64,000 nucleotides of DNA from contig JANBQS010000003.1 of NCBI GenBank assembly GCA_027577415.1, forward strand, positions 28,547 to 92,546, written 5' to 3'. This DNA comes from Coemansia sp. RSA 922 (lineage: Eukaryota; Kickxellomycota; Kickxellomycetes; Kickxellales; Kickxellaceae). A program made the position numbers and the translations under genes. The notes below the pieces were generated by a model. It searched no databases, was not told the origin of the DNA, and worked only from the letters and a program-made list of their open reading frames with translations. Positions 1,869 through 63,929 of the stretch are shown one piece after another. How positions within the stretch are numbered: the stretch's first letter is position 1; every line of letters begins with the position of its first letter.

Positions 1869-2216
1869 ATGATGTTAAAAACTAAATTGGTTGCCCCATA
1901 TGATCCTTATAGGATCTATGTTATATGTGCAGGAAATGGCGGTGTTCACAGAGAGACACATGTCTTCAATCGCCACAGCATCACTAACCTTGATACGCTG
2001 CTAGAAGAGGAGCGACGACATTATATCCGTGAGCAGCCTAGTATTAGTAACAACTTTATTCGGGCGCAATATAACACCAACTACTGTTGAATGTTAAACA
2101 TCAGCACTAATGCGCCTTATGTTCTTGAAGGCTGCCAATACATTTTTATAGGAAATGCAGCAGATGTGGTCGCTGCGACTAACAAGATATATTTTAAGAT
2201 GTTTGAAAATTTTTAA
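1869..2216 (+). pseudogene. Small orphan-family gene with one in-frame TGA (member G)
   Basis: From ATG 1869 the frame is open for 73 codons, meets a single TGA at 2088-2090, then continues in the same frame for 41 codons to TAA at 2214-2216. Read through, the product would be about 115 residues, the size of the intact relative at 41867 (114 aa). The part after the stop contains QYIFIGNA, which aligns with the second family motif (TYFLVANG at 63504, TYFVMAS at 40867) at the expected distance, about 34 residues, from the QPSISNNFIRAQ segment. The TATA box and leader look intact. I infer a recent nonsense mutation; stop readthrough, recoding or an assembly error are alternatives. The function of the family is unknown, and no signal peptide or membrane segment is visible. 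Confidence 0.55.
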
Positions 2217-3196
2217 CACTGATCTCTAATATAAATAATAGATGCTTCACTGCTCATGCCTTATCTTTCACATCTACCTTAAAGTTGTTAAAGTTTATAT
2301 GTCGTTGGATTGCACCCTAAAGGATTGTATGTGTAGTTATTTGCCCGTCATTTGCTCGTTATACAGGCAACATGTTGTTTACAACTACTAGTAACAACCA
2401 TATAACATAAATGCATAATATTTAGTGCTACGGAAAATAACAAGGTCACCTAGCTAAAGATGGGACATACCAACGCCAAAAGTAGTGCGCATTTTTTACC
2501 CAAGATGTCTGGCGAGTGTTGATTACAGAGTTTAAGCTAGCAAATCTTGGGGAAAATACCCAAAGTCGGTTGACAAAGGCGCTCATATTGGCTTTAATTG
2601 TTAATTCTTTTGTTTTCAAGCGCTATCGCATGCTTCCAGAATAACAAAAAAACAGATTAGGTATGCAAACATGTAGGCAAGGATATCCAATATGGCTGAT
2701 AAGAGGCAAACAACATTGAGGGCAAGGCCGTAGCCGATGTCCTGGCTAATTCAGACCAGCGTGCTGATTACACATAAGGGTGAGAATAAAGGATGCTCGA
2801 CAGACTACCCGACAACGTGATGCCACAATTTATGCCTGTGTACTTGCATGCAGAATGTTTGTCAATTAGCATCGCACTAGCAAACATGTGCTAAGCGACG
2901 TCCTAATGCCGCACTTGTAGCTGCAGGAGATTAAAGATAATGCTTAATGCAATTTGATGCACACGCTATATTCACTGAGAGATATTTGAACCAATTGACA
3001 ACATCTTCATTGTCAATGGCAGATTAGGTTTGACATTGCTGGCCATTCCAAATTCCTTTTTACTAAAGGTTCGCTCGATATCAAAATACTATAAAAGAAC
3101 ATTGCTTCACACTGCCTCTCCAATTGAGGAATATCAACATCCTTTACAACCTCTAAAGCAATTTTTAGCCAGCTCCATCAACAGCCTCTTTTTACG
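2217..3196. other. 980-bp AT-rich gap
   Basis: No ORF or RNA gene that I can support. A possible TATA element (ATAAAAG near 3091) lies about 105 bp before the HD-domain gene at 3197 and could belong to its promoter. Confidence 0.4.
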
Positions 3197-3829
3197 ATGA
3201 CCACCTCTAACACCACTACCATGACTCCCGAGCAACGTGTGAACAAGGTATTCCAGCTACTCGAAAATGCCAACAAGAAGGACTACATGGGCGAGAAAAT
3301 AACGCAGCTGGACCACGCTCTTCAAGCCGCGCAGCTCGCCAAGAAAGAGGGTGCCGACGAGGAGACCATTTTGGCCGCGCTTTTGCACGATATCGGTCAT
3401 CTCTGCCCATCAACGGAGCAATGCAGCGAGAGCCGTGGCAAGAACTGGGCAGCTTTCCACAAGACTGAAGCTGACATTAATGTCGGCGTCGTTGATCACG
3501 ATAGGGTTGGTGCCGAATACCTGCGCAAGCTTGGGTTCCCCAAGAAGACGTGCGAGTTGATCGAGTCTCACGTCTTGGCCAAGCGCTACCTTTCGACCAT
3601 TGATCCCTCGTATCATGCCGGCCTTAGCAGCGCCAGTAAGCAGTCGCTCAAGCTCCAGGGCGGCCCGTTCTCGCCAACCGAGATCCGCGAGTTTGAGAAG
3701 GACCCGCTCTTCAAGCAAAAGGTGCAGATTAGGAAGTGGGACGACGCCGCCAAGGTCATTGGTGTTAAGCCACCCGCCTTGGACACGTATCGCGATATGG
3801 CTATCAATAACTTGAAGCAAGCAGTTTAG
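3197..3829 (+). CDS. PhnZ/TmpB-like HD-domain protein
   Basis: A 210-residue HD-superfamily protein. Metal-binding motifs are visible in order: DHALQAA near residue 35, LLHDIGHL near residue 68, DHDRVGAEYL near residue 97 and SHVLAKRYL near residue 118, followed by the conserved stretch LKLQGGPFSP and a C-terminal RKWDDAAK. This arrangement matches the PhnZ/TmpB group, mixed-valence di-iron oxygenases that cleave 1-hydroxy-2-aminoethyl-phosphonates; many eukaryotic homologues have no tested substrate. I infer a di-iron oxygenase or a related HD enzyme, with phosphonate as the family-based guess only. It is intronless and starts at the first ATG after a short leader. No phosphonate-pathway neighbour lies beside it. 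A nucleotide phosphohydrolase activity cannot be excluded. Confidence 0.75.
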   Translation: MTTSNTTTMTPEQRVNKVFQLLENANKKDYMGEKITQLDHALQAAQLAKKEGADEETILAALLHDIGHLCPSTEQCSESRGKNWAAFHKTEADINVGVVDHDRVGAEYLRKLGFPKKTCELIESHVLAKRYLSTIDPSYHAGLSSASKQSLKLQGGPFSPTEIREFEKDPLFKQKVQIRKWDDAAKVIGVKPPALDTYRDMAINNLKQAV

Positions 3830-4735
3830 GCCATACGCTTAATGAGCGCCTCTATCTCTAGGGACAATTAGTATTTTACAGTTCATGTCTATACTGGGCT
3901 CTAATAAAATGATATATAAATCAAAATGTCATTATTTTACATTTGTGTGAGGCAACTGGATAAACACCTCTTCATAAAAGCTCCATAAAACGACATCCAG
4001 CTTGATAGACGGCAAGAACCCTTCCATCGACAGTTCAAAGCTCAACCCTGACATCATATTATTATTCAACGAGCAAGCAGAATTCCACTTCTGTGACGTG
4101 CATATGTTCCTTGGGGACAAGAGGAAGAAAATCGATCCCAAGCGTACAAGTCAGCTAGCCGACTATATACAGTCGCTTTGAGAGCAACAGCGCAACGAAC
4201 GAGTTCACATCCACCCTATTTTGTATTTTGCACGACCACAATAGCTTTTGCTATCGTTGCTCTCTCTATTTACCTACATGATGCTACACACAGAGCAAGG
4301 CTTCAGTGTTCTGAAAATTATTGTCAGTACTTACAAAGTAATCAAAAAAATAATAATAGAATCCTAAATATCCAAAAAAGGGAAAGAAAAGAACAGGCGA
4401 AGACTACTTCACACTTTCTTTTTGCAATCTGAGAAGTACTGCGCGAGATTGTCCCCCTTATCCGCCGCGAGTATCTTGTCTGTGATATCTGCTCTATGCC
4501 GTAGTTTTTAGCGTGTGATCATCATCGATTTTTTTTGCTGAAGATTAATCAAGCACGTGGACAATGGGCGGGCGCGCTCGGACCCGCATGCTGAAAGTGA
4601 CGACTGACACATGTCAGCCACAAGTGTCCGTTACCCACGCTGCTAATAAAAAGGGGGGGGGAAAGCGGTTCCAAAGTTCATCAGCCTTCCTTATCTTTAT
4701 CTTGCTTCAACTTTATCGCTACCCAACTTCTAAAT
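3830..4735. other. 906-bp gap before the SDR gene
   Basis: Mostly AT-rich. A minus-strand open stretch of 69 codons (4141-3932) without an ATG start ends in a plausible amphipathic sequence, and a TATATA lies upstream of it near 4164, but I recognise no family and do not call a gene. A CACGTG is at 4554-4559 and a poly-G run near 4653 precedes the SDR leader. Confidence 0.35.
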
Positions 4736-16774: not shown

Positions 16775-17068
16775 TTAGCCTGGTCCAACTTTGGGCATAT
16801 CGTTGTGTTCGGGTGCGCGTTCTAACTTTTCGTTGAAATCTTTAACACGCTCACGATATGACTTTTCAGCCATCTTGTCGATTCGCTCCATTTTACGCTT
16901 CATCTGCATATCGTCGTGTCGTTTCTCTGCATCTGTACGTCGTTCCTTGGGAATATCTGTGGTTTTAATCTCTTTCTTTTTCTTGTTCTTTTTAAACAAG
17001 TCCTTTTTCTTTTTGACAAGTTTGAGTGGACCAGTTCGTGCTACGCCATAGTCGTAAGCGTCAGACAT
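16775..17068 (-). CDS. FAM32A-like small nuclear protein
   Basis: A 97-residue, very basic protein of the FAM32A family, whose human member is a splicing factor seen in the post-catalytic spliceosome helping 3' splice site use. It has the family's order of blocks: N-terminal GPLKLVKKKKD, a Lys-rich linker, the RRTDAEKRHDDMQMKRKMERI helix and the C-terminal signature RVKDFNEKL followed by EHNDMPKVGPG. Start at ATG 17068 (MSDAYDYG); the frame upstream lacks an ATG and runs into the leader. Intronless, convergent with TFIIH p52. Confidence 0.9.
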   Translation of the reverse strand: MSDAYDYGVARTGPLKLVKKKKDLFKKNKKKKEIKTTDIPKERRTDAEKRHDDMQMKRKMERIDKMAEKSYRERVKDFNEKLERAPEHNDMPKVGPG

Positions 17069-17564
17069 TATTTTTATAGGAGAGCGAGAAAAAAAAAGCC
17101 AGCAAATAACAGGATAAATTTTTTGGAGTTTATTATATAGTTTTATTACGATTGATTTGGAATGTGGGTTTCCCAGAAGATAAAAAAAAATCAGTATGAC
17201 CATGGGGTATTTGGTTTCGGCTGATTCTCTATTATTAGAGAGACATCATCTCCTGGAGAGAGGTGATATGTGCAGTGAATAGATACATGCAGGTAGCCAA
17301 AGAAACGAATAGAGGCATTATTTTCTACTTATTTTTTTCAAATACAAATAAAAATCTAGTGTGTTCTTTTTTTTTTTTTTTTTGGTCACAACACTGACGA
17401 GCGTGAAACAAAGGATTTACACACTCTGGTCCCAAAAAAGGGGGGAGGCGTTTGTTTACTGAGAACTGACCTCTTCTGTTTTGCACAACATTTGTACTAC
17501 CTTGATTTTATACACCACTTTTTTATTTTTGTAGAAACACCTATTTATTTTTTATTTCATTCAT
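17069..17564. other. Divergent intergenic region FAM32A/TBC
   Basis: About 500 bp of AT-rich promoter and leader sequence, with an uninterrupted T run near 17367-17382 and a poly-G patch near 17440. No gene or conserved element identified. Confidence 0.4.
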
Positions 17565-20141
17565 ATGGCAGACGCAACACCCGAGCGAGACAGCGGGGAA
17601 AGTGGGGATACTAGCAGATCCACTTTGGCGGTGAACGGCAGCAACAACGCAGTAGTAGTGGCTTTGCCCAAGGATGACAATAGCCATAGCGACAATACCT
17701 CGAGTAGTTCAGCTCTTGAATCAAATTTGTCATTTCACTCACTCCCACCAATTTCCCTAGCAAACCGCCGACGAAGCAGCATCAAAGCTCTACCCGGGCT
17801 AACACCGCCAGTTATCGATACAAAGCCCAGCGGACATCGTAAAGCCGATAGTGCAATAGAAGACGCAACAGAGTTGATGCTAGCTCGTGCCAAAGTAGCC
17901 AACGACTTGTTATTCAAGGACCCTAAACGCGTAGTCATTGAGCACGGATACTTACAAGCCGACCAAGATACGCTTAGGTCGCTTATCGACGTCTCGTCAC
18001 CTACGTTTCGCATGCCACATAGCAGAGTACCTGAGACTAGCCCTGAGTCGGACAGCTATGCGGTGTATCCCGAGGGCGATGAGCGCGCGCTGCCGGGGTT
18101 TATTCTCTCGTGTATGACGATGGAAGAGCTGGATTTGGTGACGGGTGCTTGGGAGTCGGAGCTGGAAACTTTGAGCGATGGAGACTTTTGGCGTGGTGTC
18201 ATCAGCGACCTGGACGGGTTGTCGCGTAGAGCGCCGCTGCACTTGTCGGCGAAGATCCGGGCTGGTATCCCGGCGTCTATTCGCGGCGTGGTGTGGCAGA
18301 CGCTGACGCAGGCAAGGTCCACTTATCTGCAGACTGTGTACACGCAGTTAGTGAAAGAGTACTCGCCTCATGAGCGTATTATCAGACGTGATCTGCCCCG
18401 GACCTTTCCCAAGATCCCTGTGTTCAAGAGCGAGGGCGGGTCGGGCCAGCAGCGGCTCTTCCGGATCCTCAAGGCATACTCTCTGTACGATGCCGAGGTC
18501 GGGTACTGCCAGGGCCTAGGCTTTGTTATTGGGCCGCTGCTGATGAGCATGGGGGAATGCGAGGCGTTCTGCGTCCTTGTCCGACTGATGGAGACCTACG
18601 ACCTGCGTGGCATGTTTACCGAGGACATGGCTGGACTGCACTTGCGGCTGTACCAGTTCCAGGAGCTGGCTACTGAAATCGTTGGTGACGTAGTGGCCCA
18701 CTTGGACCGTCACGGCGTCGTTCCTGCAATGTACGTGCCGTCCTGGTTTCTCTCCTTGTTTGCATACACCATGCCGCTGAGCTTTGTCCTGCGCGCCATG
18801 GACGTTATCGTGGCTGAGGGCGCGCCCGAGTCTATTATGCGCATTGGCATAGCCCTTTTGCAGCGCAATGCCGAGCACATACTCCGCCAGGACGACTTTG
18901 AGTCGGCCATGGCTGCCGTCAACAGCGGGCTCTACGACGACGCAAATAACACGAGGGATAGGCCTGGCTATGTGCTACAAGAGGCGGCCAAGCTTAGCGC
19001 TGTTGTTACGAGGCAGCGGCTGGACGAGCTGGAGGTGCAGTATTGCCGAGAGCAAGGCGTGGTGCTGAAGGGCCGGCAGAGCACGTCGACGCAGGCCACG
19101 CAGGTGGCTACACCTACGGCGCAGCAGGCTATTACAAAGTTTCTGGGGTGGCCGTGGAGCAAAGACAATCTGGCTCCACAGACCCCTTCTGCTCGGCGTC
19201 CTAGGGCGTCGGAGACAGGGCGGATTAGTCCCCGGGTACTGGAGCTTACAGAGGAGCAGCAGCTCCAGTCTCAGCGCCTGCGTGAGCAAGTGTTGCTGGA
19301 GCTGCAGAACCAGTCAATGGCCCCAGCTACTGTCCTAGGAGCAGGGGAGATCAAGACTAGAGAGTCGGCCGAATCGACCAAGACTGCTGTTGCCGACACT
19401 GATGTTGATGAGCCGCCTCGTTCGGCTGCAGCACAGGGCCAGAGGGACGGCGCTTGGCGTGACGAGGTGCTGGAGCCGCTGAACCGGCAGCTCCATGATG
19501 CGCGAGTCACTTGCGCCTCACACAGAGACGCACTAGTAGCCTTGCAAGCAGACCACGAACTATTGCGAGCAGAACTGGCCGCTGCCAAAGCCGATCGCGC
19601 CGAGCTGGCTTCAGATAATGAGCAGCTGAGAATGCTACTGCGTCGGGCGGAGTCGGCTACGGTGGCTGCTGATGAGCGGGCAGAGTACTCGGGCGAGCGG
19701 TCTAAACGGGCTGAAGACATGCTTATTGCCGCCAGAGTGGAGCTGGCAGAAGCCGACGAGGAGCGTGCGTTGCTGGTGAGGCAGTTGAGCAATTTGCGCA
19801 AGTTTATCGCTGATTCTGGTAATGAGGAACCCGCAGAGAGAGCCAGACTGTTCTCTGTCGATGGCGGGTCTCGGCCTACGCAGCAACCTCAGCCCGGTAG
19901 GTTTAGTATCTCTAGTATAGGATCGGCTATCCGTGGCGCTATTACTAGCCCCCGCCAGCAGCTACCAGATCCACCTTTGATGTCTCCACCGTTGGTCTTG
20001 TCGCCACCGCCGACTGCTCGGCAGCACTCGTCGATTCCCTTGGCTTCGCTGCATCGCAGCAAGACTACGCCACCAGGCACTATTGTCACATCTCCGTTGC
20101 CTTCATCTCGCAACACTATTAATAGCAGCATTATCAATTAA
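17565..20141 (+). CDS. TBC-domain Rab GTPase-activating protein
   Basis: An 858-residue RabGAP. The N-terminal 200 residues are Ser-rich and disordered. The TBC domain spans about residues 225-450, starting at KIRAGIPASIRGVVWQTL. Both catalytic fingers are present: IRRDLPRTFP (IxxDxxR, Arg finger near residue 277) and YCQG (Gln finger near 314). After residue 580 a long coiled coil (repeated Leu/Ala/Glu heptads) runs to about 740, followed by a Pro/Ser tail. TBC plus C-terminal coiled coil resembles Gyp5/EVI5-type GAPs, which act on secretory or endosomal Rabs. The specific Rab cannot be deduced. Intronless; convergent with Snf7 with only 24 bp between stops. Confidence 0.9.
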   Translation: MADATPERDSGESGDTSRSTLAVNGSNNAVVVALPKDDNSHSDNTSSSSALESNLSFHSLPPISLANRRRSSIKALPGLTPPVIDTKPSGHRKADSAIEDATELMLARAKVANDLLFKDPKRVVIEHGYLQADQDTLRSLIDVSSPTFRMPHSRVPETSPESDSYAVYPEGDERALPGFILSCMTMEELDLVTGAWESELETLSDGDFWRGVISDLDGLSRRAPLHLSAKIRAGIPASIRGVVWQTLTQARSTYLQTVYTQLVKEYSPHERIIRRDLPRTFPKIPVFKSEGGSGQQRLFRILKAYSLYDAEVGYCQGLGFVIGPLLMSMGECEAFCVLVRLMETYDLRGMFTEDMAGLHLRLYQFQELATEIVGDVVAHLDRHGVVPAMYVPSWFLSLFAYTMPLSFVLRAMDVIVAEGAPESIMRIGIALLQRNAEHILRQDDFESAMAAVNSGLYDDANNTRDRPGYVLQEAAKLSAVVTRQRLDELEVQYCREQGVVLKGRQSTSTQATQVATPTAQQAITKFLGWPWSKDNLAPQTPSARRPRASETGRISPRVLELTEEQQLQSQRLREQVLLELQNQSMAPATVLGAGEIKTRESAESTKTAVADTDVDEPPRSAAAQGQRDGAWRDEVLEPLNRQLHDARVTCASHRDALVALQADHELLRAELAAAKADRAELASDNEQLRMLLRRAESATVAADERAEYSGERSKRAEDMLIAARVELAEADEERALLVRQLSNLRKFIADSGNEEPAERARLFSVDGGSRPTQQPQPGRFSISSIGSAIRGAITSPRQQLPDPPLMSPPLVLSPPPTARQHSSIPLASLHRSKTTPPGTIVTSPLPSSRNTINSSIIN

Positions 20142-20165
20142 GAATATATAAGAAGAAAAAAATGA

Positions 20166-20858
20166 CTACATTGCCATACCCATGCTCTCGCGTAACTCGG
20201 CCAACTCATCGTCTTCATCCACATGCTCGACAACAGGACGCGTGTTGCGCTGGGGCTGTGCAGTGGGACTCCTAGCAGCAGCAGAAGCAACGGTCTGTGG
20301 CGGGAGTTTAGGCAAAGACACTGGGACTCTACCCGAGTTAAGCAACTGTTTATCCAACTCTTCCTGTTCCAATTCCTCTAGTTCAGCTTCCAATTCGTCT
20401 TCGTCCATTTCAGCACCAAACAACTGAGGCTGAGAAATAGCGTCAGAGACCTCGTTAGCCAAATCCATCTGCTCTCTAATATCCTCCATAGTTTGGTCGA
20501 CCTTATCGATATTCAAATCCTTATGTATATGTTTCATAGCTTCGGCGCCCCGTTCCATAGCCTTCATAGTCTCGAGGTTGACGTTTGCGGCTTCAATCGA
20601 CATTGCCTGTGCTTCGATGGTCATACGAGTACCGCTCATCTTTTCTAACTGATTGTCGTATAGTTTCTTACGCTTCAACGCCAATAGGGCTACGCGTCGG
20701 TTGGAGGTGGCGTTGGTCCGCGCGATTTTAAGTTCATTGTCGATTTTACCCTGAATGTGTAGCTCTCGCTTTTCTAGCATGGTCAGCGTTTCCCGTAGAT
20801 TTATAATTGCATCTTTGGGCGTCGTCTTTTCCTTCTTCTTGGCAAAGAACAGATTCAT
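20166..20858 (-). CDS. snf7: ESCRT-III subunit Snf7/Vps32 (CHMP4)
   Basis: A 230-residue ESCRT-III core subunit that polymerises on endosomal membranes to drive vesicle budding and membrane scission. The N-terminal basic helix (FAKKKEKTTPKDAI), the paired helices with ALLALKRKK, the QAMSIEAANVNLETM segment, the acidic region EDELEAELEELEQEELDKQLL and a C-terminal MIM-like helix (DELAELRESMGMAM) are in canonical order. Length matches yeast Snf7 (240). Start is ATG 20858; the three codons upstream begin with TTG. Intronless. Confidence 0.95.
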   Translation of the reverse strand: MNLFFAKKKEKTTPKDAIINLRETLTMLEKRELHIQGKIDNELKIARTNATSNRRVALLALKRKKLYDNQLEKMSGTRMTIEAQAMSIEAANVNLETMKAMERGAEAMKHIHKDLNIDKVDQTMEDIREQMDLANEVSDAISQPQLFGAEMDEDELEAELEELEQEELDKQLLNSGRVPVSLPKLPPQTVASAAARSPTAQPQRNTRPVVEHVDEDDELAELRESMGMAM

Positions 20859-21252
20859 GATTGACAAATGTGAAAGAAAAAAAGGTAGTATACAAAATTT
20901 AGTGTAGAAGAGAAAACCTGAAGAATGCGTTAGTTTGCCAAGCTAAAGCTTGTGTAGTTTAAGCGTCACGTGGTATGCGCATGATTAAATCTGTTGACCC
21001 AATTTTTTGGCAGTAAGAGCTGGAGCCAATCACAGAGCTGAAATGGAATGGGTCGATTGTTGTTGGTTTCCTTTGTATGCGCAAAACTAAATTAGGACGG
21101 ATGGGGGGAGGCTTGCTGGTCTTGAAAACTACACGAACCAGTCCGCTTTTTTGACCTACAAACTTTCCATCACCTTTTTCTTTTTTGCATACTCTTAACT
21201 TTTCAAGTACCCTTTTTTTTCTTCGCCTAACGACTCCCCTCCACCCAGAATA
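20859..21252. promoter_or_regulatory. Divergent promoter Snf7/RAX1-like
   Basis: The 394 bp between divergent starts include a CACGTG (20967-20972) in the context GTCACGTGG and a pyrimidine-rich leader just before ATG 21253. Confidence 0.4.
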
Positions 21253-23052: not shown

Positions 23053-23169
23053 GTCTATTTATGTACTCCCATCATCTAAATATCCCTTTTTCCGCATCTA
23101 TTAATAATAAGAGCAAATCTGCCCACTACTTTAATTTTCTTCCTATTATTGTTTCCTTTATTTTTTTCA

Positions 23170-24556: not shown

Positions 24557-24565
24557 TATAAAAAA
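24557..24565 (+). promoter_or_regulatory. TATA box of small gene at 24651
   Basis: TATAAAAAA, 94 bp upstream of ATG 24651, followed by GCAGGCC, similar to the GC-rich start of the leaders of the related genes at 40867 and 63504. Confidence 0.7.
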
Positions 24566-26946: not shown

Positions 26947-26947
26947 A

Positions 26948-41271: not shown

Positions 41272-41780
41272 TTGGATTTACCATTCTTGTATCTCTCTAC
41301 TCCAAACAGATGTCCGCTACTGAGATGGAGAGGGAGAGAACATGTATGGTTAGGTGTCTTGCCTCCTGTCCAATATTTTTCACCACTTGGCTTTTTAGTG
41401 TGGGTTCACATCCTAGTAGCACTACTATTTTTTCCTAGCTTTTCTATTATTATTATTTTTTGTTAGCTTTAGTTAATACAAAATAATTATTATCATGTCA
41501 TTATTGAAACTTAATCATAGGTGCGTTTTTTTTTGGTCTACAGATTCCTTTTAGGTTTTCCTTGCGCTTTTACTTTCTGGACTGAATTTGCCAAGTATCT
41601 GGCTTGCTTGTTCTGCAATGTGATTCGGGGGAAGACATGTAATTTGCAAAAAACCAAAGACACTCCAATAGTGTAGCTATTAAAAAGAATAATGTGATAA
41701 TTGTCACTTGATCATTATTCCCAATCATGTGTTTTCCGTTGACTGGCCAAGTCAAGCTGACTTAGACTAAAAAATCCTCC
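41272..41780. other. Gap between two small genes
   Basis: AT-rich; no copy of the shared upstream module found here, although the next gene belongs to the same family. No ORF of note. Confidence 0.35.
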
Positions 41781-41788
41781 TATAAAAA
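41781..41788 (+). promoter_or_regulatory. TATA box of small gene at 41867
   Basis: TATAAAAA, 86 bp upstream of the ATG, followed by a C/A-rich leader. Confidence 0.7.
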
Positions 41789-41866
41789 AAACCTCCCACC
41801 AACTGGATCCATTTTTTTTATTCCTTTCTCTTACCAACAACCAATTATCCCCTTCCACCAACTACT

Positions 41867-42211
41867 ATGCCTTGCCCAGTTTACTATCTACCTAAACTAC
41901 CAGCACAGGGTATTGTTCTATGTGACATAGAGCTTTCTGGACACACCTATAAATCAGCCGCTGAACGACTTAGTATCCTCAAGACACAGGAAATGGGCGA
42001 CGTTGCATTGTATTTCGTTTTCAAAACTGAGTATTTAACTGTTATCACAGGTCAAGAGTTCCCCAATGTACCTATTACACACGACGTAGAGGAAATATTT
42101 TTTGCGAGTACAACAGTCGGATTACTCTGCCTCAAGGGCAAAACCCCTGCCAACATCAGTGAGCCATATCAATCAAATGGCGATAGAGTACGTGCAAAGT
42201 ACTCACAGTAG
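41867..42211 (+). CDS. Small orphan-family protein (member D)
   Basis: A 114-residue protein, adjacent and in tandem with member C (600 bp apart). GDVALYFV (44-51) and EEIFFAS (75-81) occupy the two family motif positions, 31 residues apart; a helix-like segment (YKSAAERLSIL) precedes the first. No signal peptide, membrane span or known domain. Codons are AT-rich compared with the SNX gene next door. Identity to member C is low, so if they arose by tandem duplication it was long ago or they evolve fast. Function unknown. Confidence 0.7.
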   Translation: MPCPVYYLPKLPAQGIVLCDIELSGHTYKSAAERLSILKTQEMGDVALYFVFKTEYLTVITGQEFPNVPITHDVEEIFFASTTVGLLCLKGKTPANISEPYQSNGDRVRAKYSQ

Positions 42212-42280
42212 ACATAATATGACCAAACTTTCTAAATAAAACAAGAATTATAAAATAAAAAAATAAAAAATAAAAAATTA

Positions 42281-44653
42281 CTACTCGACTAGATCCACAG
42301 CTTCTTTGGCTTCTTTCCATATTTCCAAGTTCTTTTCAGCCCACTCTAGGTGCATTTTAGCCAGTGCTATGAGTGTAGATTTGAGTTCACGCACTTTTTG
42401 TTTCTGGAATCTGTCCAAATTGTCCTGCGTACTCGTATTGATCAGCACCAAGTCATTGCTCAGCATCTCCAGCTGCTCCTCAAGAATGCCAATCCGGTCC
42501 GACGCGCGACCGATTTGGTTCCGACGCATTTGCTCAGGGTCCACGTCCATCATACCGTTCAGCGCGTATGTCAGTCGGCTCATGATCCCGTCCCCAAGCA
42601 CCTTGGGCGACCTTAGCAGCCGCGCCCCAAACGACGACTGCACAGGCCCGGGTGCCACAGCAGATGCGCTCATCCCGGTCGCCACATGTGTCCTCTGCTG
42701 CTGCTCGCCATCGTCATAGGCCGATTCGCGGTGCTGGTGGTCTCTGAGCGCCGGTGTAGACGCGGCCATCACCTTGGCATTATATGCAGCACTGTCATCG
42801 ACAGGCGGCTGGTGATCAGCCGTATGGCGGGGCAGCGCCGAGGGCATAGGCGGGTGGTTGCGAGCAGGACTATTGGCGCGGCCAATATACTCGGAGCGCG
42901 CCATATGCGGGTACGCCCCAAACGTCTCCTCACCACTCTGCTGATGATGCTGACTGCGACTACTGCGCGCGCCAAGTCTCGGCAGAGTGCTGCGAGTACC
43001 TCCGCCCCATAGCTGCGACTCCTCCTGCTGGAACTGCGCCAACGGGTCTTCCTCTTCCTCCTCGTCCGCCTCCTCGTCGTCGTCCTCCATGCCATTGCGT
43101 CCACTCCACGCCGCAGCAGACCCACGGCGATTCCTGCCACCAGCAGACCCCGTGCTAGTAGCAGTGCCCGCCCTAGATCTCAGCCTCTGTTGGGTCGCGC
43201 GTCCTCCGAGCGACGACGGAGCAAACGCAGAGTCTTCGGGAATGCTTTGTGGCGCCAGCGTCGGCGTAAAGTCGCCGTGGATGCCGACCGACGTACCAGA
43301 CCCCACGCTTTGTCCACGCGATCGCCTACCACCAGCAGCCACCGCATAGGACATGCCGGCCGCGCCCGACGCAGTGTCGATGCTTGCCCGCTGCGGAGTA
43401 GAAAACCCACGCTGCTGGGCAGCAACCGAGTCGTCCTCGTCGTAAGCCGGCGGCGGCATCAGTGAGTCATGTTCAGTATCAGCTTCCGCATACCGCCGAA
43501 CCTCTCCGGCCTGGGCCGATGGCGGCACGACGCGAGCAGAGCCAGAGGACTCCAAAGCCAAGGCCAAGCGCTTCGCCTCGTCGTCAGCCTGCAGCAGGCC
43601 CTCGAGCTTGGCGCGCTGACGAACAAGCGCCTCCTGGGCATTCTCCATCTGCAGGTTCTTGAGCAGGCGGAATCTCAGCACCTGCTTAATAATCATCGCG
43701 TACTGCGCATACTCATGAATGGGCTCACTGACCTCGGCGTCCATCTGGCGCAGCAGCTGGTTGATCTCAATATAGGAGCTATCCACAGCCTGCCCGGCCT
43801 TTTCAATCGCCGCTGCCAAAGACTCTGGGTGCTCCAAGAGACTAAACCCGTTGAGCGTCGCCCCAAGCTCAGCATAGTCCCCAGAGAGCTCACCCAGCTT
43901 ATGGTAGATACGCCGCTCGCTGCGCTCCACCACACCCGAAAAGTGGTTAGCGTACTTGTTAGTAAACAGCTCGCAGTCCATCCACCGCGCCTCAATATTC
44001 TTAATCGGCGCCAGCGTGCTGGGAACAAGCACGTCAGAGGCAAAGCTGTTGGTGGCCGCGATCTTGGGCAGCTGCACAGCAGACCCGTCAGCAAGCGACG
44101 ACCCCGGCGCCCGCGACGGCGACGAATGCAACGGTGATTTAGGCAGCCCCGTTACAATAGGCGAGTGGAGGACCTCAGTCCACGATACGCCGCTCTCCAG
44201 GAACCGATGCAAGATATGCTCGCTGCTCAGTATCGGGTGCTCGACAAGGTGGTTCAGAAAATGCTCCAGCATACGCTTCCGCCGCTCGATAATATACTGG
44301 TCCTCCTTGGCCCGCTTCTGCAGCACGGCGTATTGCGTCAAAGAGTGCTTCTCGGGAATCGGCGGCACAATAAAAGTCGGGTATAGACGACATAGACAGA
44401 TACGCAGTGACTCGAACTCGCTGTAGCGCCGCTTGACCTCGCACTCGCCAAACTGAATTGAATATGCTATGAACGACGACCCGTTTTCGCTTAGCTTTTC
44501 TGCTTCGCCAATATGTACCACGTAGTAGGCCTGTGGAGGCTGGTAGTCCCGTCCTTGTTCGCCATTGTGTTCGTGTCGCTGGGCATTGGCGTCGTCGAGG
44601 AGCTCGTGGACATGACGGTCGATAGCACAACAGTAGTCGCCAAACTCTGCCAT
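42281..44653 (-). CDS. Atg20/Snx41-like PX-BAR sorting nexin
   Basis: A 790-residue sorting nexin. The PX domain is at about residues 38-150: YYVVHIGEAEKL, IQFGECEVKRRYSEFESLRICLCRLYP (containing the PI3P-binding RRYSEF), VPPIPEKHSLTQYAV and RRKRMLEHFLNHLVEHPIL. A helical BAR region follows from about residue 225 (WMDCELFTNKYANHFSGVVERSERRIYHKLGEL), is interrupted by a long disordered, acidic and Ser/Gln-rich insert (about 390-680), and resumes near the C-terminus (RIGILEEQLEMLSNDLVLINTST and MHLEWAEKNLEIWKEAKEAVD). A split BAR with a disordered insert is typical of yeast Atg20 and Snx41, which work with Snx4 in endosomal recycling and selective autophagy. Start ATG 44653 lies just before conserved sequence. 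Intronless. Confidence 0.85.
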   Translation of the reverse strand: MAEFGDYCCAIDRHVHELLDDANAQRHEHNGEQGRDYQPPQAYYVVHIGEAEKLSENGSSFIAYSIQFGECEVKRRYSEFESLRICLCRLYPTFIVPPIPEKHSLTQYAVLQKRAKEDQYIIERRKRMLEHFLNHLVEHPILSSEHILHRFLESGVSWTEVLHSPIVTGLPKSPLHSSPSRAPGSSLADGSAVQLPKIAATNSFASDVLVPSTLAPIKNIEARWMDCELFTNKYANHFSGVVERSERRIYHKLGELSGDYAELGATLNGFSLLEHPESLAAAIEKAGQAVDSSYIEINQLLRQMDAEVSEPIHEYAQYAMIIKQVLRFRLLKNLQMENAQEALVRQRAKLEGLLQADDEAKRLALALESSGSARVVPPSAQAGEVRRYAEADTEHDSLMPPPAYDEDDSVAAQQRGFSTPQRASIDTASGAAGMSYAVAAGGRRSRGQSVGSGTSVGIHGDFTPTLAPQSIPEDSAFAPSSLGGRATQQRLRSRAGTATSTGSAGGRNRRGSAAAWSGRNGMEDDDEEADEEEEEDPLAQFQQEESQLWGGGTRSTLPRLGARSSRSQHHQQSGEETFGAYPHMARSEYIGRANSPARNHPPMPSALPRHTADHQPPVDDSAAYNAKVMAASTPALRDHQHRESAYDDGEQQQRTHVATGMSASAVAPGPVQSSFGARLLRSPKVLGDGIMSRLTYALNGMMDVDPEQMRRNQIGRASDRIGILEEQLEMLSNDLVLINTSTQDNLDRFQKQKVRELKSTLIALAKMHLEWAEKNLEIWKEAKEAVDLVE

Positions 44654-45513
44654 TATTTTTTTCGACACAAAAGAAAAACGGACCTTTAACTTTGGCAATT
44701 GGAGAGTATCAAGATAATCTCGAAAAGAGAAAACTGTAATTTAAAAAAGTGATGCAGTTTTTAAAAAAGAACAAGATAAAGTTTTTACAAATTTTAAAAA
44801 AGGCGAAGAGTGTGAGACGATTGCTGTGTGAGTAAAAACATTCTGCTTGCTTAGCAAGCCAGGTGACGTGTTGAATCATCAGTTCATGCGATTTACCAGG
44901 AGGACAAAAAAAGGCCGAGCCGTGACTCGATCATTTACGCTTAAACCACGTGAGTGAGGAGAGGGAGGGATCCAGTACATCGCATGCGGTTCTCGTCAAT
45001 TAGCTGGGGAAACAGGTTCCATAGACAAGTGACAGCTCGCTCACATGGAAAAGTTGCCAGGCTTCTTCAAAGCCCTGGCTGAGTTCTAAAGTAGTCGGCA
45101 GGATTGCCAGAGGAGGAAGCGCTCAGCCTTCCCAGCTGCAAATCCAACCAAGAATTCCCCTCCTCACGTTTATCCAGCTCTACAGTCTAGGTGCATACTC
45201 CAGTACTACTAAAACCCCATTGTGATAATTTGATTTTGTGCCGCATGATCCCAATTCCACGCCTTGCATGCAGAGCACTTGACTGCATGCGAGCAGACAC
45301 ACTCGATTGTCCCCTCTTCCCCACCCACTCACGCTATTTTACTTTTCCCCACTTGGGCTCTCGACAATATACCTCATTTCCAACTATACACAATTTGTAC
45401 TATTATATTTTACTTCCTATCTCTCGCCAAAACAGCTCAGACAGACGGTGAAAAAGGAATAAACAAAGAACCTTCTCTCGCTCTCTCACTTTCTTTCAAT
45501 TACACGCTATTAC
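44654..45513. promoter_or_regulatory. Divergent intergenic region SNX/UBTD
   Basis: 860 bp. A CACGTG is at 44947-44952. The half nearest the UBTD gene is a very C/T-rich leader (45300-45510). No independent gene recognised; the ORF at 45191-45451 is pyrimidine-tract translation. Confidence 0.4.
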
Positions 45514-46533
45514 ATGGGTGGTTGCCTGTCTACACGGCCAGAGCCAAGTGCGCTCGCTGGCGGGACACAAAGCGGGCGAGAGGCAACATCGGTTGACATC
45601 CGAGCGACACCATTACAACGAGCAGCCAGACGTCGGCGAGCCATAGAAGCAGCAGGACTAGGCTCCGCTGTTCTTCCAGGCGATGGCCGCGTAGATTTTG
45701 GACACACTACGCGATGGCGCGCTGAGCGAGAAATGACTTTGGCCGAGCTAATGCGACAACGAGAAGAGTTCTGGGACACTGCCGCAGTATACGAAGGACG
45801 AGCAGAGATATGGCAGGCGCTGCGGCTAGCGTGTGAGAGTGACGACGCGCAGCTGGCTGTTGCTATACTGGAAAGTGTTGGCGTCTCGGTGCCTACCGGA
45901 AGAATAGCAGATGGCGCGTACGATGAGCTTGGAGCTTGCTACGATATTCCCTTGTACTGTTTGTGTGCGCCAGTAAATCTTGTGGCGGGGCCTGGCAATG
46001 TGGCTGCTGACCGCAGTTATGCCCGACGAGTGCAGTTGCAGGAAGATGGCGACGCGCTTTTGAGGGAGAGCGTTGATAGCGGCCAGAGTATTGTCGTCGG
46101 CCATGCTCCTGCTGTGCCATGTCCTATTACTCATGGCTCGGCGCCTGGGTTGTCGCCGTCGCTATACGCAGTTGGTAGCGCTAAATTTGCCGCTACGTCG
46201 GTACAGAGTCCTACTTCTGTTGCTGATTCGGATGCTGCCTCGTTTGCCTCGTCGTCGGTGCCTCTGCACGTAAATCCAATTCTGGCAGAGGTTCCCCTGC
46301 GCCCGCTTCGAGTAAGGCTTTGTGTCGGCAGGGATGCTCAGGTCAACGTAGCGGCAGACTCGACTATCGCGCAAATCGAGCAAATGTTGCGCGACGCCAA
46401 CCATATTCCACAGACTACCAACCGCGTATTATTTTTCTACCTTGGCCACTTGCTTGCGCCTTCCGCTGCGCCGCTCAGAGACTTGCGCTTGCCAAAGCCT
46501 GCTATAATCCAAGCGTTCTACTCGTTATCGTAA
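45514..46533 (+). CDS. UBTD1/2-like ubiquitin-domain protein
   Basis: A 339-residue protein of the ubiquitin domain-containing protein family (UBTD1/UBTD2, DC-UbP), adaptors that bind E2 and deubiquitinating enzymes. The N-terminal DC-UbP domain covers about residues 60-155, with TLAELMRQREEFWDTAAVYEGRAEIWQAL, DDAQLAVAILESVGVSVPTG and YDELGACYDIPLYCLCAPVNLV. A Ser-rich linker follows, and a ubiquitin-like domain spans about 265-339 (RPLRVRLCVGRDAQVNVAADSTIAQIEQML and RVLFFYLGHLL). The N-terminus MGGCLS is a classical myristoylation site with an adjacent Cys for palmitoylation, predicting membrane attachment as in other UBTD proteins. Intronless. Confidence 0.9.
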   Translation: MGGCLSTRPEPSALAGGTQSGREATSVDIRATPLQRAARRRRAIEAAGLGSAVLPGDGRVDFGHTTRWRAEREMTLAELMRQREEFWDTAAVYEGRAEIWQALRLACESDDAQLAVAILESVGVSVPTGRIADGAYDELGACYDIPLYCLCAPVNLVAGPGNVAADRSYARRVQLQEDGDALLRESVDSGQSIVVGHAPAVPCPITHGSAPGLSPSLYAVGSAKFAATSVQSPTSVADSDAASFASSSVPLHVNPILAEVPLRPLRVRLCVGRDAQVNVAADSTIAQIEQMLRDANHIPQTTNRVLFFYLGHLLAPSAAPLRDLRLPKPAIIQAFYSLS

Positions 46534-46585
46534 TTACTTTTTTCATTATTCGTAAAAAAAAAATATGATATTTTAAATTATATCA

Positions 46586-47512
46586 TTAGATATACATGAC
46601 GGTGTTGGCGCCCTGTACGGCTAGCAGATCGGCTTGTTCGTTGTCGTGGATGCCAGAATGACCGCGCACATGGATAAACTGTATCGAACCTCTATACTCC
46701 TTCATACTAAGCAATATAGCTCTGATCAGGTCCTGGTTGTTGACTTGCTGGCCTGCGCTATTAACCCATCCGCAGCTCTCCCATTTGTAGTGCCAAACAC
46801 TGACACAGTTAATCGTATACATAGAATCCGTACAAATAACCAAAGTCTTTGTACTGCCACTAGACGATACCGTTTCGATTGCGCGCAATACTGCCATTAA
46901 CTCTGCGCGCTGGTTGGTTTGACGGGGACCGGCAAGGGATTCAGATATGTTGCGTGGATCTAGGGCACCAAAGTACACACCTACGCCGGCGCGTGCTCCC
47001 TTTTTGCCATTTTTCGAACTGGCTCCATCCGTGTATACGACTATTTTATCTTCTGTCTCGCCAACCAATGGTGGTGGTGCCGTGGGATGTGTTACGGATT
47101 CATTCACCCTCGTTAATTTACGACCCACCTCCCTTGGTTTGCGCTGCCCGTCGCCCGTACTCCTTTCCGATATGTAGGGTGCCGCACGATGGGTTCTCGC
47201 CATGGGGGTGTTCACTCTTCCTGGTGCTGACGTGTGTTCGGATGTTGCCGATGATAGGGGTGCTTGTGGACCGGCAAACGTTTGGGCTTCATTTAAATCC
47301 TTGAATTTTTTGAATATCGCACCTGGATATGCGTTCACCTCGGCCTTGCACTCATCCCAGGTCCTGTATATACCTGCTTTTCTTCCGACCCTTACTGCGT
47401 AATACGAACCACCATCTTGAGTGGACGATCTGGGCATATTGGGTTTTCTAAAGTAGTTTCGCGTGAGTGTTCGAATAAAAAATGCAGGTTTAGAGATACT
47501 GGTAGAGTACAT
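46586..47512 (-). CDS. Ribonuclease H1, possible dual targeting
   Basis: A 308-residue RNase H1, which degrades RNA in RNA-DNA hybrids. The N-terminal hybrid-binding domain is at residues 36-80 (YYAVRVGRKAGIYRTWDEC and on to KKFKDLNEA), then a disordered linker, then the catalytic domain with D162 (YTDGAS), E204 (QRAELMAV), D229 (CTDSMY), H285 (HVRGHSG) and D295 (NEQADLLA). All catalytic residues are present. Two in-frame ATGs matter: the first (47512) adds 25 residues, basic and hydroxylated without acids, that look like a mitochondrial presequence; the second (47437, MPRSS) starts just before the hybrid-binding domain. Animal RNASEH1 makes nuclear and mitochondrial forms in the same way. 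Intronless and cellular, not retroelement-derived. Convergent with the UBTD gene. Confidence 0.93.
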   Translation of the reverse strand: MYSTSISKPAFFIRTLTRNYFRKPNMPRSSTQDGGSYYAVRVGRKAGIYRTWDECKAEVNAYPGAIFKKFKDLNEAQTFAGPQAPLSSATSEHTSAPGRVNTPMARTHRAAPYISERSTGDGQRKPREVGRKLTRVNESVTHPTAPPPLVGETEDKIVVYTDGASSKNGKKGARAGVGVYFGALDPRNISESLAGPRQTNQRAELMAVLRAIETVSSSGSTKTLVICTDSMYTINCVSVWHYKWESCGWVNSAGQQVNNQDLIRAILLSMKEYRGSIQFIHVRGHSGIHDNEQADLLAVQGANTVMYI

Positions 47513-47778
47513 ATGATATGGTATAAGAAAAAATAGAGTGAAACTATAAAGAAAACTAGAACCATCCCATGAACTACAAAAAAAATATATTATTTGGATT
47601 TCTTGCCTAAATTATTCAAGAATATGGGCATAAAGTGTGTTGTCAAATTGACAGCATACAGTACCAAAAAATTTCTTACTCTTTCCAAGTCAATCTGTTA
47701 ACAAAACAATAAAAGGACTAAAAAAATATAGATTCAAAGTATCGATTGCCCGCTTGTCTTGTTGTCTTACACTTGGAC

Positions 47779-48539
47779 TTATAGCTTTGCAAGCTTCTTG
47801 TCATAGGCATCAGATATCTGACAGGGTTCTGACACAAAAAAACAGTAGCACGTGTAAGTGGATAACAGGATATTGACCTTATGTGTATCCTGTAGTAGGT
47901 ACTCACTTGAAAATGGCGATTGCAAGTTCTTCTTAAAGAACTTACATACCATCTGTAGGGTTTAGCAATAGTTCAACTAACACATTGTATGCTGACAAGC
48001 TGACGTTGTCATCCGTGGAATTAAACAAGTCGCCAATCCAGGCATTGTAGACTAACGCGTCTTCAACTGAGAGCTTATGATAAGCATCCAACACCTCCTT
48101 GTGTCGTGGCATCTGTCCTATACAATTCGGGGGATTGGCTAATGCATGTATTAACTGATCCCTTGATAAATCGTAATTCATATGATCTTTCCTTGTTGCT
48201 GTACCCATGATTATGTCATAGTCTGTTGATCCTTCACAAAACCATTTGTGAATTGTTTTCCATGATTGTCCATTCACAAGTACAAATCGTGCTGTATCAT
48301 CTATAATAACATTGATAAAATCTATACTATCACAGGTGGAAGAGCTACGATAAACTCTATTATTTGTAGCAACAAGTACTGATTTACCTTTTTTTATCAC
48401 TATATTCGCATTTATTCTTTACATACATAGCAGCAGTTGCACAGTTCTTTTTGTCCTTAGGAATAGGTAGCTCGTCAATAAGTTTCAGATCCTTGGCATC
48501 ACTTTCATACGCATATACTTTATAAAGCATTTCTGGCAT
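47779..48539 (-). pseudogene. Small orphan-family gene with intron, frameshifted (member E)
   Basis: From ATG 48539 (MPEMLYKV) the frame is open to a run of seven A on the coding strand (plus 48389-48395); with one A fewer it would continue uninterrupted to 47950. There a GTATGT donor (from 47949) and a TTTTTTTGTGTCAG acceptor (ending 47829) define a 121-nt intron, and exon 2 (47828-47779) ends SDAYDKKLAKL. The corrected length is 212 residues, the largest of the family. KGKSVLVA and ARFVLVNG match motifs of members C and F; DQLIHALANPP matches member A. The upstream module is shared with C and F, but the position of the TATA box holds GTTTAGAAGG and the TGACGTAA site is lost. It is either a young pseudogene or, for the frameshift alone, a homopolymer sequencing error. 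Confidence 0.6.
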
Positions 48540-48639
48540 CTTTAGATACGTTTTTGGACAAGTGAAACCCAAGGGTGTGAGCGTGTCAGTATGTCAAATA
48601 AAATAAAAATAGGAAAAAAAAAATAGATGAAGAAAGATG

Positions 48640-48985
48640 AAGAAAGAAGAAGAAATTAAGAGGCCAGCGGACCTTCTAAACATTAGCTGGAGTGGAAGTG
48701 AATAGAAAAAAGCTGAGAAAAAAGGTTGGGAAAAGCCTTCCCCCCCCCAACGATCCTATAGTGGTTGGAAACAGAAAACTAAACCTCATGCCTTTTGTCA
48801 AAGCCAGGTGCAATTACTACAAAGGTTTGTGCTATATTAATTGTTTCCCACTATGGAGCAAGTGGGAGTTTGCAAAGGCTACAATGGACAAAAAAGGGAG
48901 CAAAAAGGGGATTTCAATTTTTCTAATGTCCAAGAATGTCTCCATTTTCAAAGGCACTTTCTCCAAGCCAAGTGTGAAGCGGTAG
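48640..48985 (-). promoter_or_regulatory. Shared upstream module of the broken gene at 48539
   Basis: Read on the minus strand it has AAAGTGCCTTTGAAA (48960-48946), CACTATA (48763-48757) followed by GTTGGGGG, and TCCACTCCA (48696-48688). Distances of 197 and 67 bp compare with 197 and 69 bp in the module upstream of 40867. No good TATA box follows. Confidence 0.65.
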
Positions 48986-49428
48986 AGGCTGGCTTGTAAG
49001 GGGTTTATTGCTGAGCACACTATCAACTGTTTATGAGGAGGGAAGAAAGCCATGCCTTTAGATTTGTTGTGATGCACTGAGCTGCAGCCACCTTTGGCCG
49101 CAGCAAACGCTGAGTGGGCCAGTAGATATGGTCCACTTCTCTGCAATATGGGGATTGAGGTTCCTTAGTTCGCTATTACTCACATTTGCTTATATATTCT
49201 ATTATATTCGCTCATAATACTTACTCGCTAACAGATTAGTAATAGTGCTAGACTTCCAAGTACTGATGTACTCAGCTTGTCGTTTTATTTTTTTAACAAA
49301 TAAACAAATTAATTACAATTTATAAGATGTGACACGCTACTTTCTAAATGAGTGGTTCGGTGCCACCACAATATAGTTGCAATGATAATTTTTATTATAA
49401 CTATATATACGAAATAACCTCGTAAAAT
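48986..49428. other. Gap beyond the shared module
   Basis: No gene recognised; partly 3' flank of the ABC transporter fragment. Confidence 0.3.
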
Positions 49429-62827: not shown

Positions 62828-63376
62828 TAGCTTTGTTCCTTGCTGAGGGAATAGCCTAACAATAATTGGCCTCGTCAAGAAACTCCCTGTTTGGTTTACT
62901 TTACAAGCAGCAATAAACAAGAATTTACTCTTTTTTTACTCGGTGCTGCAACATGTTGGGCTCTGGTGGGCCTTCTGCTGTTGCAGAGGCATTAGCTGGC
63001 GTGCTCAACCACGCCCTCATCATAGGCCACCTTTGACAGCTTTGTACTGGCATAAGCAAAGTGCCTTTGAAACCTGGGGTGCTTTGAAATTTTCTAAATA
63101 ATGACGACATCTCAAGACTTCTAAATAGATTGCGATGCCCTTCTTTAGAATTTTTTGTGCACTGTATGCTGCGGCTCCAGCTAAAATCCCTGTTTAGCTC
63201 CAATGTGAGGAGCAGTTTATACTGCACATCCCTTTGAACTAATTGTTTTTTTTGGGCATGACGTAAGGTGTGATTTGGCTATTCCCATCTCCAAGCACTA
63301 TATAATGGTTGGGGAGAGACTTTTCAAGTACTATTCTTCTCTGCTTTTTTTCTAGTTGCCTCCACTCCAGCCGTGG
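62828..63376. promoter_or_regulatory. Upstream control region of the small gene at 63504
   Basis: Contains AAAGTGCCTTTGAAA (63058-63072), TGACGTAA (63259-63266), CACTATA (63296-63302) followed by ATGGTTGGGGAG, and TCCACTCCA (63361-63369). TGACGTAA to CACTATA is 37 bp, exactly as upstream of 40867. No ORF recognised in the gap. Confidence 0.7.
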
Positions 63377-63384
63377 TATAAATA
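63377..63384 (+). promoter_or_regulatory. TATA box of small gene at 63504
   Basis: TATAAATA, 127 bp upstream of ATG 63504, right after the TCCACTCCA element, with a C/T-rich leader. Confidence 0.75.
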
Positions 63385-63503
63385 AAGCCTGCCCAAGGCT
63401 GCCAGTACATTTTCTCTCTCTCCTTCACTCTCACATCCACATCTCTTTTGATTATCAAACACACTCCAGCCCTTATTTTGTTCTTGGTCAAATTTACTTA
63501 CAA

Positions 63504-63929
63504 ATGGAAGGTAAAGAGTATACAATTATTCTCCTGGAGGATTCTCTCATGAAGTATTGTGGACCTGTAGTCCACAAGGAAAAAATGACTGATATTTTTG
63601 AAGCTGCAAAAATGATAAAAGATGGATATATAGGTACCAATATGAAAGGAAAGTCGGTTTATGTTGCTTCCAGTGACAGTGGAGAAAATGATGTTTTGAA
63701 ATATACCACGACTACGAAAAAACTCCCTGGAAAATATTATCCCGAATTATCAGAACAAACATATTTCTTAGTTGCTAATGGAGCTGGTATGATTGGATTT
63801 ATGGGTGACTTACAAAATAAGGGGCTTACTGAGCATCAAGCAATTACAGCTGCAGCAGAGTATCTAAAGGTGAACCAGAATGAAAAACTACCTGCATATA
63901 CTCTGGCTAATATGTTACTAAAGAAGTAG
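63504..63929 (+). CDS. Small orphan-family protein (member F)
   Basis: A 141-residue protein from ATG 63504 (MEGKEYTII); the longer open frame upstream is leader sequence. No signal peptide, membrane span or known domain. KGKSVYVA (48-55) and TYFLVANG (86-93) are the clearest versions of the two family motifs. A helix-like segment (MTDIFEAAKMIKDG) precedes the first, and TEHQAITAAAEYLK follows the second, in the place of DQLASYLVNPP in member A. It is closest to member C at 40867 and member E at 48539, with which it also shares its upstream region. Intact, with TAG at 63929; an additional 3' exon past the window edge cannot be excluded, as member E has one. Function unknown. Confidence 0.8.
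   Translation: MEGKEYTIILLEDSLMKYCGPVVHKEKMTDIFEAAKMIKDGYIGTNMKGKSVYVASSDSGENDVLKYTTTTKKLPGKYYPELSEQTYFLVANGAGMIGFMGDLQNKGLTEHQAITAAAEYLKVNQNEKLPAYTLANMLLKK

What the first reader, a model, noticed from the sequence alone, without database searches (positions are those of the whole stretch)
1869..63929. Dispersed family of small, fast-evolving orphan proteins (7 members plus 1 candidate in 64 kb)
Genes at 1869, 24651, 25734 (minus), 40867, 41867, 48539 (minus) and 63504, with 27758 as a candidate, encode roughly 114-212 aa proteins without recognised domains. Seen directly: two hydrophobic motifs 29-38 residues apart, clearest as KGKSVYVA/TYFLVANG (63504), RGKKAHVI/TYFVMAS (40867) and KGKSVLVA/ARFVLVNG (48539); and DQLASYLVNPP (24651) against DQLIHALANPP (48539). 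They are AT-rich, scattered singly or in tandem between conserved genes, and most have a strong TATA box 86-127 bp before the ATG. Two are freshly broken. Inference: a lineage-specific family under birth-and-death evolution, perhaps a stress-induced or self/conflict system with a small alpha/beta fold. I recognise no described family that fits.
Basis: partly seen in the sequence, partly recalled or inferred. Interest (0 to 1): 0.9.

Follow-up and report, generated by a model that had tools for sequence, protein, structure and literature searches.

The report
Hypervariable orphan gene families in Coemansia
A small soil fungus appears to carry several large families of tiny, previously unseen proteins whose switches (promoters) stay alike while the proteins change so fast that even the two copies in one assembly differ, a pattern expected of genes caught in a biological arms race.

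Summary
The genes are real but are not one family. By sequence they fall into at least four orphan families of a Coemansia-like fungus: A (63504, 40867, broken 48539, probably divergent 41867), B (24651), C (25734) and D (broken 1869). 27758 is conserved, no paralogue was found, and it is not a member. Family A has 51 profile-confirmed loci in the fetched DNA, 39 full-length. Two searches of 5.8 billion proteins found no homologue, although Coemansia proteins are held there. A model from three window sequences (pLDDT 71, pTM 0.72) shows a ubiquitin-like beta-grasp domain plus helices. The assembly holds a second, haplotype-like copy of the region: 10 of 12 compared neighbour proteins are 92-100% identical, five family proteins 46-97%, with extra copies on one side. 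Fifteen A pairs share 84-95% of upstream DNA but only 24-40% of protein, and one gene is a gene-conversion mosaic. Core strands are conserved while loops and helices vary, unlike plain decay. Most likely a cytosolic, co-regulated, rapidly diversifying recognition or conflict repertoire. That function is inferred, not shown.

The parts
63504..63929 (+). Family A gene, full length (141 aa); the protein of the structure model
62943..63503 (+). Family A promoter unit of 63504, shared with many paralogues; 5' edge estimated from alignment ends (C3:91489)
40867..41271 (+). Family A gene, full length (134 aa); counterpart on C88 is 80% identical
40440..40866 (+). Family A-type upstream region of 40867
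47942..48539 (-). Family A gene with long C-terminal extension, reading frame broken
48540..49000 (-). Family A-type upstream region of 48539 (no TATA match within 200 bp)
41867..42211 (+). Divergent gene (114 aa), probably family A; link is weak
   Evidence: profile E 0.034; hhalign E 0.001, probability 22%; intermediate C393:5742-6209
24651..25079 (+). Family B gene (142 aa); C88 counterpart 66% identical and with stops
25378..25734 (-). Family C gene (118 aa); C88 counterpart 97% identical
1869..2216 (+). Family D gene, broken by an in-frame stop (pieces 1869-2090 and 2091-2216)
25235..25398 (.). Solo-LTR-like repeat with 5-bp flanking duplication, overlapping the last codons of 25734
27758..28258 (+).
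16884..48425 (.). Stretch collinear with contig C88 (second, haplotype-like copy)

Best explanation
The window samples several co-existing repertoires of small soluble proteins, family A the best studied. Shown or strongly indicated: most A genes (33 of 38 with enough upstream DNA) are units of a related family promoter, about 560 bp where its edge could be seen, and an uninterrupted frame for a predicted beta-grasp (ubiquitin-like) domain with a helical tail. Units are found in tandem and dispersed, some beside solo LTRs; at least one has exchanged a piece with its neighbour by non-allelic gene conversion; a minority are broken. Promoters stay alike while loops and helices of the protein diversify, so the two haplotype-like copies carry different sets. 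Inferred: the common TATA/CRE-bearing promoter switches the set on together under stress or at a developmental stage, and the domains act as intracellular binding or decoy modules against fast-changing partners (viruses, transposons, selfish elements or foreign nuclei), so that new variants are favoured.
For: 51 loci, 39 full-length. Counterparts on C88: neighbours 10 of 12 at 92-100% protein identity, family 46-97%, extra A copies on C88. dN/dS 0.00-0.20 for ten neighbours against 0.51, 0.49, 1.32 for 25734, 40867, 41867; 6 of 13 close A pairs above 1. pN 0.033 in core strands against 0.114 elsewhere, ten pairs pooled. 77 of 666 upstream pairs above 0.75 identity, 74 of them more alike than the coding DNA. 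One upstream cluster for 33 of 38. Conversion mosaic C103:28198. Beta-grasp order in the model and in the structural matches. No hydrophobic segment of TM or signal-peptide strength in 38 of 38.
Confidence: 0.4

Rival explanations
1. Relaxed, stress-induced gene families: the proteins have a loosely constrained role (for example protein binding in stress), copies turn over by drift, and promoters are kept alike by gene conversion or constraint.
For: TATA-rich promoters with CRE-like hexamers; overall pN/pS 0.84 over ten pairs; most close pairs do not differ significantly from dN/dS 1.
Against: Strand cores are clearly constrained; A proteins in the two copies of the region differ far more than most neighbours.
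Confidence: 0.25
2. Selfish genes working like spore killers or meiotic drivers (as fission-yeast wtf): units spread by duplication and conversion because they bias their own transmission, and hypervariability reflects killer-resistance turnover.
For: Multi-copy, haplotype-variable, solo LTRs nearby, conversion mosaic, promoters alike across divergent genes. For wtf, non-allelic gene conversion including promoters is described (PMC6526906, passages).
Against: No transmembrane segment in 38 of 38, no sign of two alternative products; no drive data.
Confidence: 0.2
3. Passengers of a retrotransposon or other mobile element: the promoter-gene unit moves as cargo and has no host role.
For: Solo LTRs abut some copies, and homology units have a recurring 5' edge near -560.
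Against: No solo LTR of the 274-bp kind in the window or in C88 although both hold A genes; the viral fold library has no match at E 0.001. I did not search the flanks systematically for reverse transcriptase.
Confidence: 0.07
4. C88 and the other second copies come from a mixed culture, hybrid or second species, so the 'allelic' divergence is divergence between strains or species.
For: Synonymous divergence of neighbours is high, 0.04-0.21; read depth could not be examined.
Against: Does not remove the contrast: family proteins still evolve faster than most neighbours, and the within-genome paralogue pattern does not depend on it.
Confidence: 0.3

Closest known systems
wtf gene family (Schizosaccharomyces pombe meiotic drivers)
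   Same: Multi-copy, rapidly evolving, non-allelic gene conversion that includes promoters (PMC6526906, passages); LTR association (for wtf recalled, not seen in the passages)
   Different: wtf proteins have predicted transmembrane domains (passages); here 0 of 38. No sequence match sought directly; drive untested
Fungal allorecognition (het/vic) genes and NLR repertoires
   Same: Highly polymorphic non-self recognition genes, sometimes recognising small proteins such as the 208-residue HET-C (PMC10197012, passages)
   Different: No HET, NACHT or repeat domain found by Pfam in 22 A members; single small domain; no incompatibility data
Ubiquitin-like beta-grasp domains (ubiquitin, PB1, USP7 Ubl, TBCE Ubl, plexin Ubl)
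   Same: Strand-strand-helix-strand-strand-strand order, weak structural matches over residues 1-97
   Different: No sequence or Pfam match, helical tail, no C-terminal di-glycine in 63504
Crinkler-type N-terminal domains
   Same: Small ubiquitin-like domain in expanded families (recalled)
   Different: No Pfam match in 22 members; no attached effector domain, open frames of at most 288 aa

Membership tests
Ubiquitin-like beta-grasp fold | Order b1-b2-a1-b3-b4-b5 | tested here: met
   AF2 model of 63504, pLDDT 70.8, pTM 0.72, three sequences
Ubiquitin-like beta-grasp fold | Clear structural match to solved members | tested here: inconclusive
Ubiquitin-like modifiers (conjugated) | C-terminal di-glycine | tested here: not met
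   63504 ends LLKK
wtf-type drivers | Transmembrane segments | tested here: not met
   0 of 38 proteins with a 19-residue Kyte-Doolittle mean above 1.6
wtf-type drivers | Non-allelic gene conversion | tested here: met
   mosaic C103:28198; upstream partners differ from coding partners in several genes
wtf-type drivers | Poison and antidote products, drive in crosses | not testable with these tools
   needs transcripts and crosses
Fungal het/NLR genes | HET, NACHT, NB-ARC or repeat domains | tested here: not met
   Pfam scan of 22 A members at E 1: eight weak unrelated families only
Fungal het/NLR genes | High allelic polymorphism against flanking genes | tested here: met
   one pair of haplotype-like contigs
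Classically secreted effectors | N-terminal signal peptide | tested here: not met
   no 12-residue window above 2.0 in the first 30 residues in 38 of 38 by a simple hydropathy script, not a signal-peptide predictor
Crinkler N-terminal domain | Pfam match | tested here: not met
   no crinkler model among matches of 22 members at E 1
BRCT domain | Score above Pfam gathering cut-off | tested here: not met
   63504: 17.0 bits against 21.3; 2 of 22 members show a weak match

The most novel reading that the evidence does not exclude
An early-diverging fungus keeps several parallel, separately regulated repertoires (families A-D) of tiny single-domain recognition proteins. Each repertoire has its own common promoter and hypervariable coding cassettes renewed by gene conversion: in effect a genome-encoded variable-receptor or decoy system on a beta-grasp scaffold, without a counterpart known to me in fungi.
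Probability: 0.25. Interest if true: 0.9.

Novelty: new variant of a known kind. Interest (0 to 1): 0.68.

Why it matters
Self/non-self and conflict systems of fungi are known mainly from Dikarya (recalled); a review of the fungal immune system has no occurrence of Zoopagomycota or Kickxell in its main text. Here a Coemansia-like genome shows dozens of apparently unannotated, haplotype-variable genes with a promoter-constant, protein-variable layout. It gives named loci, a common promoter and allele-like pairs with which to ask whether early fungi have their own recognition or selfish-gene systems, and it warns that small orphan families may be missed in annotation of such genomes.

Tried and rejected
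Single-family reading of all eight genes: rejected. hhalign A-B, A-C and A-D give probabilities of 0.5-0.8%. In the first, global run A-B scored 10.5 against 4.0 and 4.5 for reversed alignments: a hint only, not used. BRCT: below cut-off. PDB sequence search with the A profile: one hit, E 0.86. Defence-system library: 0 of 22 members. Structure of 24651 from a single sequence: pLDDT 39, useless, so a common fold of A and B is untested; C and D were not modelled. Viral fold library: nothing at E 0.001; ubiquitin-like proteins of giant viruses are among the weak rows. Decoys: of 2527 reversed frames two passed E 0.001 (best 2.6e-4), so the threshold alone is not clean; the weakest frame accepted into A in the run had E 5.7e-6, and it is not among the 58. 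The first blastn of C88 against the window returned nothing because the locus files were not under the assumed names; repeated correctly. Minus-strand loci were first translated on the wrong strand and redone. Literature: searches listed no paper that, by title and abstract start, describes such families in Coemansia or Kickxellomycotina; preprints and most subscription journals are not held. Three papers were seen as passages only; none was read whole.
Full report
Where we are. The window is G000:C3:28547-92546 of a 20.4-Mb, 960-contig assembly. A neighbouring gene (45514, Pfam UBD) has its best database match in Coemansia sp. S146 at 94% identity, followed by many other Coemansia and by Martensiomyces and Linderina (34 hits, only the 7998 best candidates scored). 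The source is a Coemansia or very close to it.

Family A. The protein at 63504 gives 32 match rows in its own genome at E 1 or better, itself included, 40867 gives 25 and 48539 gives 18. An iterated profile over the frames of the 235 kb fetched plus the family D loci collects 58 open pieces. They make 51 loci, 39 with a full-length frame as I defined it; one of the 39 is cut by a contig end, so later counts use 38. Twelve loci are not full length; at least one of these lies at the edge of a fetched stretch and may not be broken. With weak single-sequence hits that were not read, the union is 63. The assembly holds two copies of at least some regions, so the number per haplotype is lower. The consensus is strand YPVxxL, helix VHxAAxxVKxxY, strand KSVYVATNNxVYKY, strand TYFLxANG, then helices (22 members). 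The three clear members in the window share about 450 bp of upstream DNA. 41867 joins A only weakly: profile E 0.034, a link through C393:5742-6209 at E 0.027 and hhalign E 0.001 with a probability of 22%.

Other families. 24651 (B) gives six rows, one itself and two from one broken C88 copy; its relative on C957 adds C65, C33 and C8. 25734 (C) gives ten rows, itself included, and its relative at C3:27471 fifteen. 1869 (D) gives 35 rows, itself included, of which I read 14 frames. One representative each of B, C and D has no Pfam match at E 0.1, and none has a profile link to A. Upstream DNA is alike within C (5 of 6 compared) and within D (6 of 6 compared); no match at E 1e-4 was found between families (17 upstream regions of B-E and 41867 against each other and the 38 of A). 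In B only the C957/C323 pair is alike. 27758 stands alone in the fetched DNA.

Orphan status. The A profile scored none of 460 candidates at E 1 and a haplotype-conserved A member none of 22 at E 10, in a database that does hold Coemansia proteins. That search needs shared five-residue words and predicted proteins, so what is shown is absence from annotated proteins, not from related genomes. B, C and D were not searched there.

Two haplotype-like copies. Contig C88 (38,307 bp, fetched whole) is collinear with window 16.9-48.4 kb, at 92-96% nucleotide identity in the three long blocks and 86-88% in shorter ones; histidyl-tRNA synthetase also has a second copy at 98%, on C459. Protein identities, window against C88, 12 non-family frames: 20166 100%, 39970 100%, 42281 99.5%, 21253 99.3%, 37401 98.9%, 45514 98.8%, 33709 98.7%, 27758 96.4%, 46586 94.5%, Hsp70-like 23170 91.9%, DUF4246 gene 29326 83.4%, and the short frame at 39377 75.2%. 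Family frames: 25734 96.6%, 40867 80.5%, 41867 77.8%, 24651 65.5% with stops in the C88 copy, 48539 45.6% to its positional counterpart. C88 has further A copies near its positions 1.6 kb, 11.2 kb and 13.4-14.0 kb for which the window shows no positional counterpart. My Nei-Gojobori script gives dN/dS 0.00-0.20 for ten of the 12 neighbours (29326 and 39377 were not computed), dS 0.04-0.21, and 0.51, 0.49 and 1.32 for 25734 (only six changes), 40867 and 41867.

Evolution of A. Among 13 close pairs dN/dS runs from 0.15 to 2.17. Six exceed 1, one nominally significantly (C426/C827, p 0.045); three are significantly below 1 (p under 0.001, 0.002, 0.032). Pairs share members and no correction was made. 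Over ten pooled pairs the core strands b1, b3, b4 and b5 have pN 0.033 and the rest 0.114. So the fold core is kept while surface elements change, which plain decay would not give; positive selection is plausible, not proven. Of 666 pairs among 37 genes, 77 have upstream (300 bp) identity above 0.75 (shuffled: mean 0.62, maximum 0.69 in 150 trials), and 74 of these are more alike upstream than in the coding DNA, with median protein identity 35%. The extreme is 63504 against C489:2412: upstream 95%, protein 35%. Fifteen pairs have upstream identity of 84-95% with protein identity of 24-40%; their synonymous sites are diverged too (dS 0.56-1.53), so promoters must be homogenised by conversion or held by constraint. 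C103:28198 shows conversion directly. In 60-bp windows it follows its counterpart C432:6952 at 73-95% up to window start +210 and 90-98% from +390, but at only 60-75% for window starts +240 to +360, where it is 85-100% identical (+240 to +330) to the neighbouring gene C432:8233.

Promoter. Of 38 A upstream regions of 500 bp or more, 33 form one similarity cluster. TATA at -60 to -160: 29 of 38 against 2 of 24 other window genes (large frames of my choice, starts not verified). CACTATA 24 of 38 against 1 of 24, GTTGGGG 25 against 0, CCTTTGAA 26 against 0. CRE hexamers: 38 occurrences in 19 of 38, against 9.5 (sd 3.2) in mononucleotide-shuffled sequence; 5 occurrences in 4 of 24 other genes. The A regions are homologous, so the counts are not independent. 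Reading CRE as stress or bZIP control is recalled knowledge and inference.

LTRs. A 274-bp repeat with TGTAG..CTACA ends has 11 copies in the fetched sequence, ten on contigs C103, C32, C426, C497, C746 and C827 near A genes and one (C3:26693) beside a C gene, none inside the window or C88. One copy (C103:25477) has a clear 5-bp duplication. Fetched stretches were chosen for family genes, so enrichment is not tested.

Mechanism. Step 1, common induction through the shared promoter: inferred. Step 2, soluble intracellular beta-grasp proteins: supported by absence of strong hydrophobic segments in 38 of 38 and by the model. Step 3, diversification by duplication, conversion and loss: shown. Step 4, selection for novelty by a changing antagonist or foreign self: inferred from hypervariability. 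I put the conflict reading at 0.4, relaxed stress genes at 0.25 and selfish drivers at 0.2.

Verdict.

Noticed in passing
window 29326-31212; L081 1-1149 (C3:22153-23301): A DUF4246 gene (PF14033, E 1.9e-98) and a close relative of its N-terminal part about 35 kb away beside a second family D copy; the C88 counterpart is only 83% identical, unusually divergent for a neighbour.
   Followed up: partly
window 56639-58378; L082-L084: Long proteins starting with an F-box-like motif (by eye; no Pfam match at E 0.1 for the window one) lie next to family D genes on C33, C8 and C28; a possible partnership.
   Followed up: no
window 25235-25398: A solo-LTR-like repeat (TGTCAC..ATCACA, duplication TTGCG) supplies the last codons and stop of gene 25734; related copies on C432, C426, C32 and C239.
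   Followed up: partly
window 253-576 (-): Remnant resembling a DDE transposase (PF13358, E 0.004, below cut-off) near the broken family D gene.
   Followed up: no
L075:2606-2935 (C88:12606-12935): hAT-type dimerisation remnant (PF05699, E 0.001, below cut-off) inside the extra family A stretch of C88; similar DNA near A genes on C759 and C489.
   Followed up: no
window 23170-24240: Short Hsp70-like protein (356 aa, ATPase part only) next to 24651, 92% identical to its C88 counterpart and with raised dS (0.21).
   Followed up: no
C3, C88 and C459 contig ends: All three have a family A gene at or within 2 kb of a contig end, as if assembly broke at these repeats; copy counts may be low.
   Followed up: no
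L069 1668-2135 (C17), L070 3093-3452 (C755), L068 7363-7728 (C529): Further small orphan frames beside family C genes with a similar strand-helix pattern by eye; perhaps more families of the same kind.
   Followed up: no
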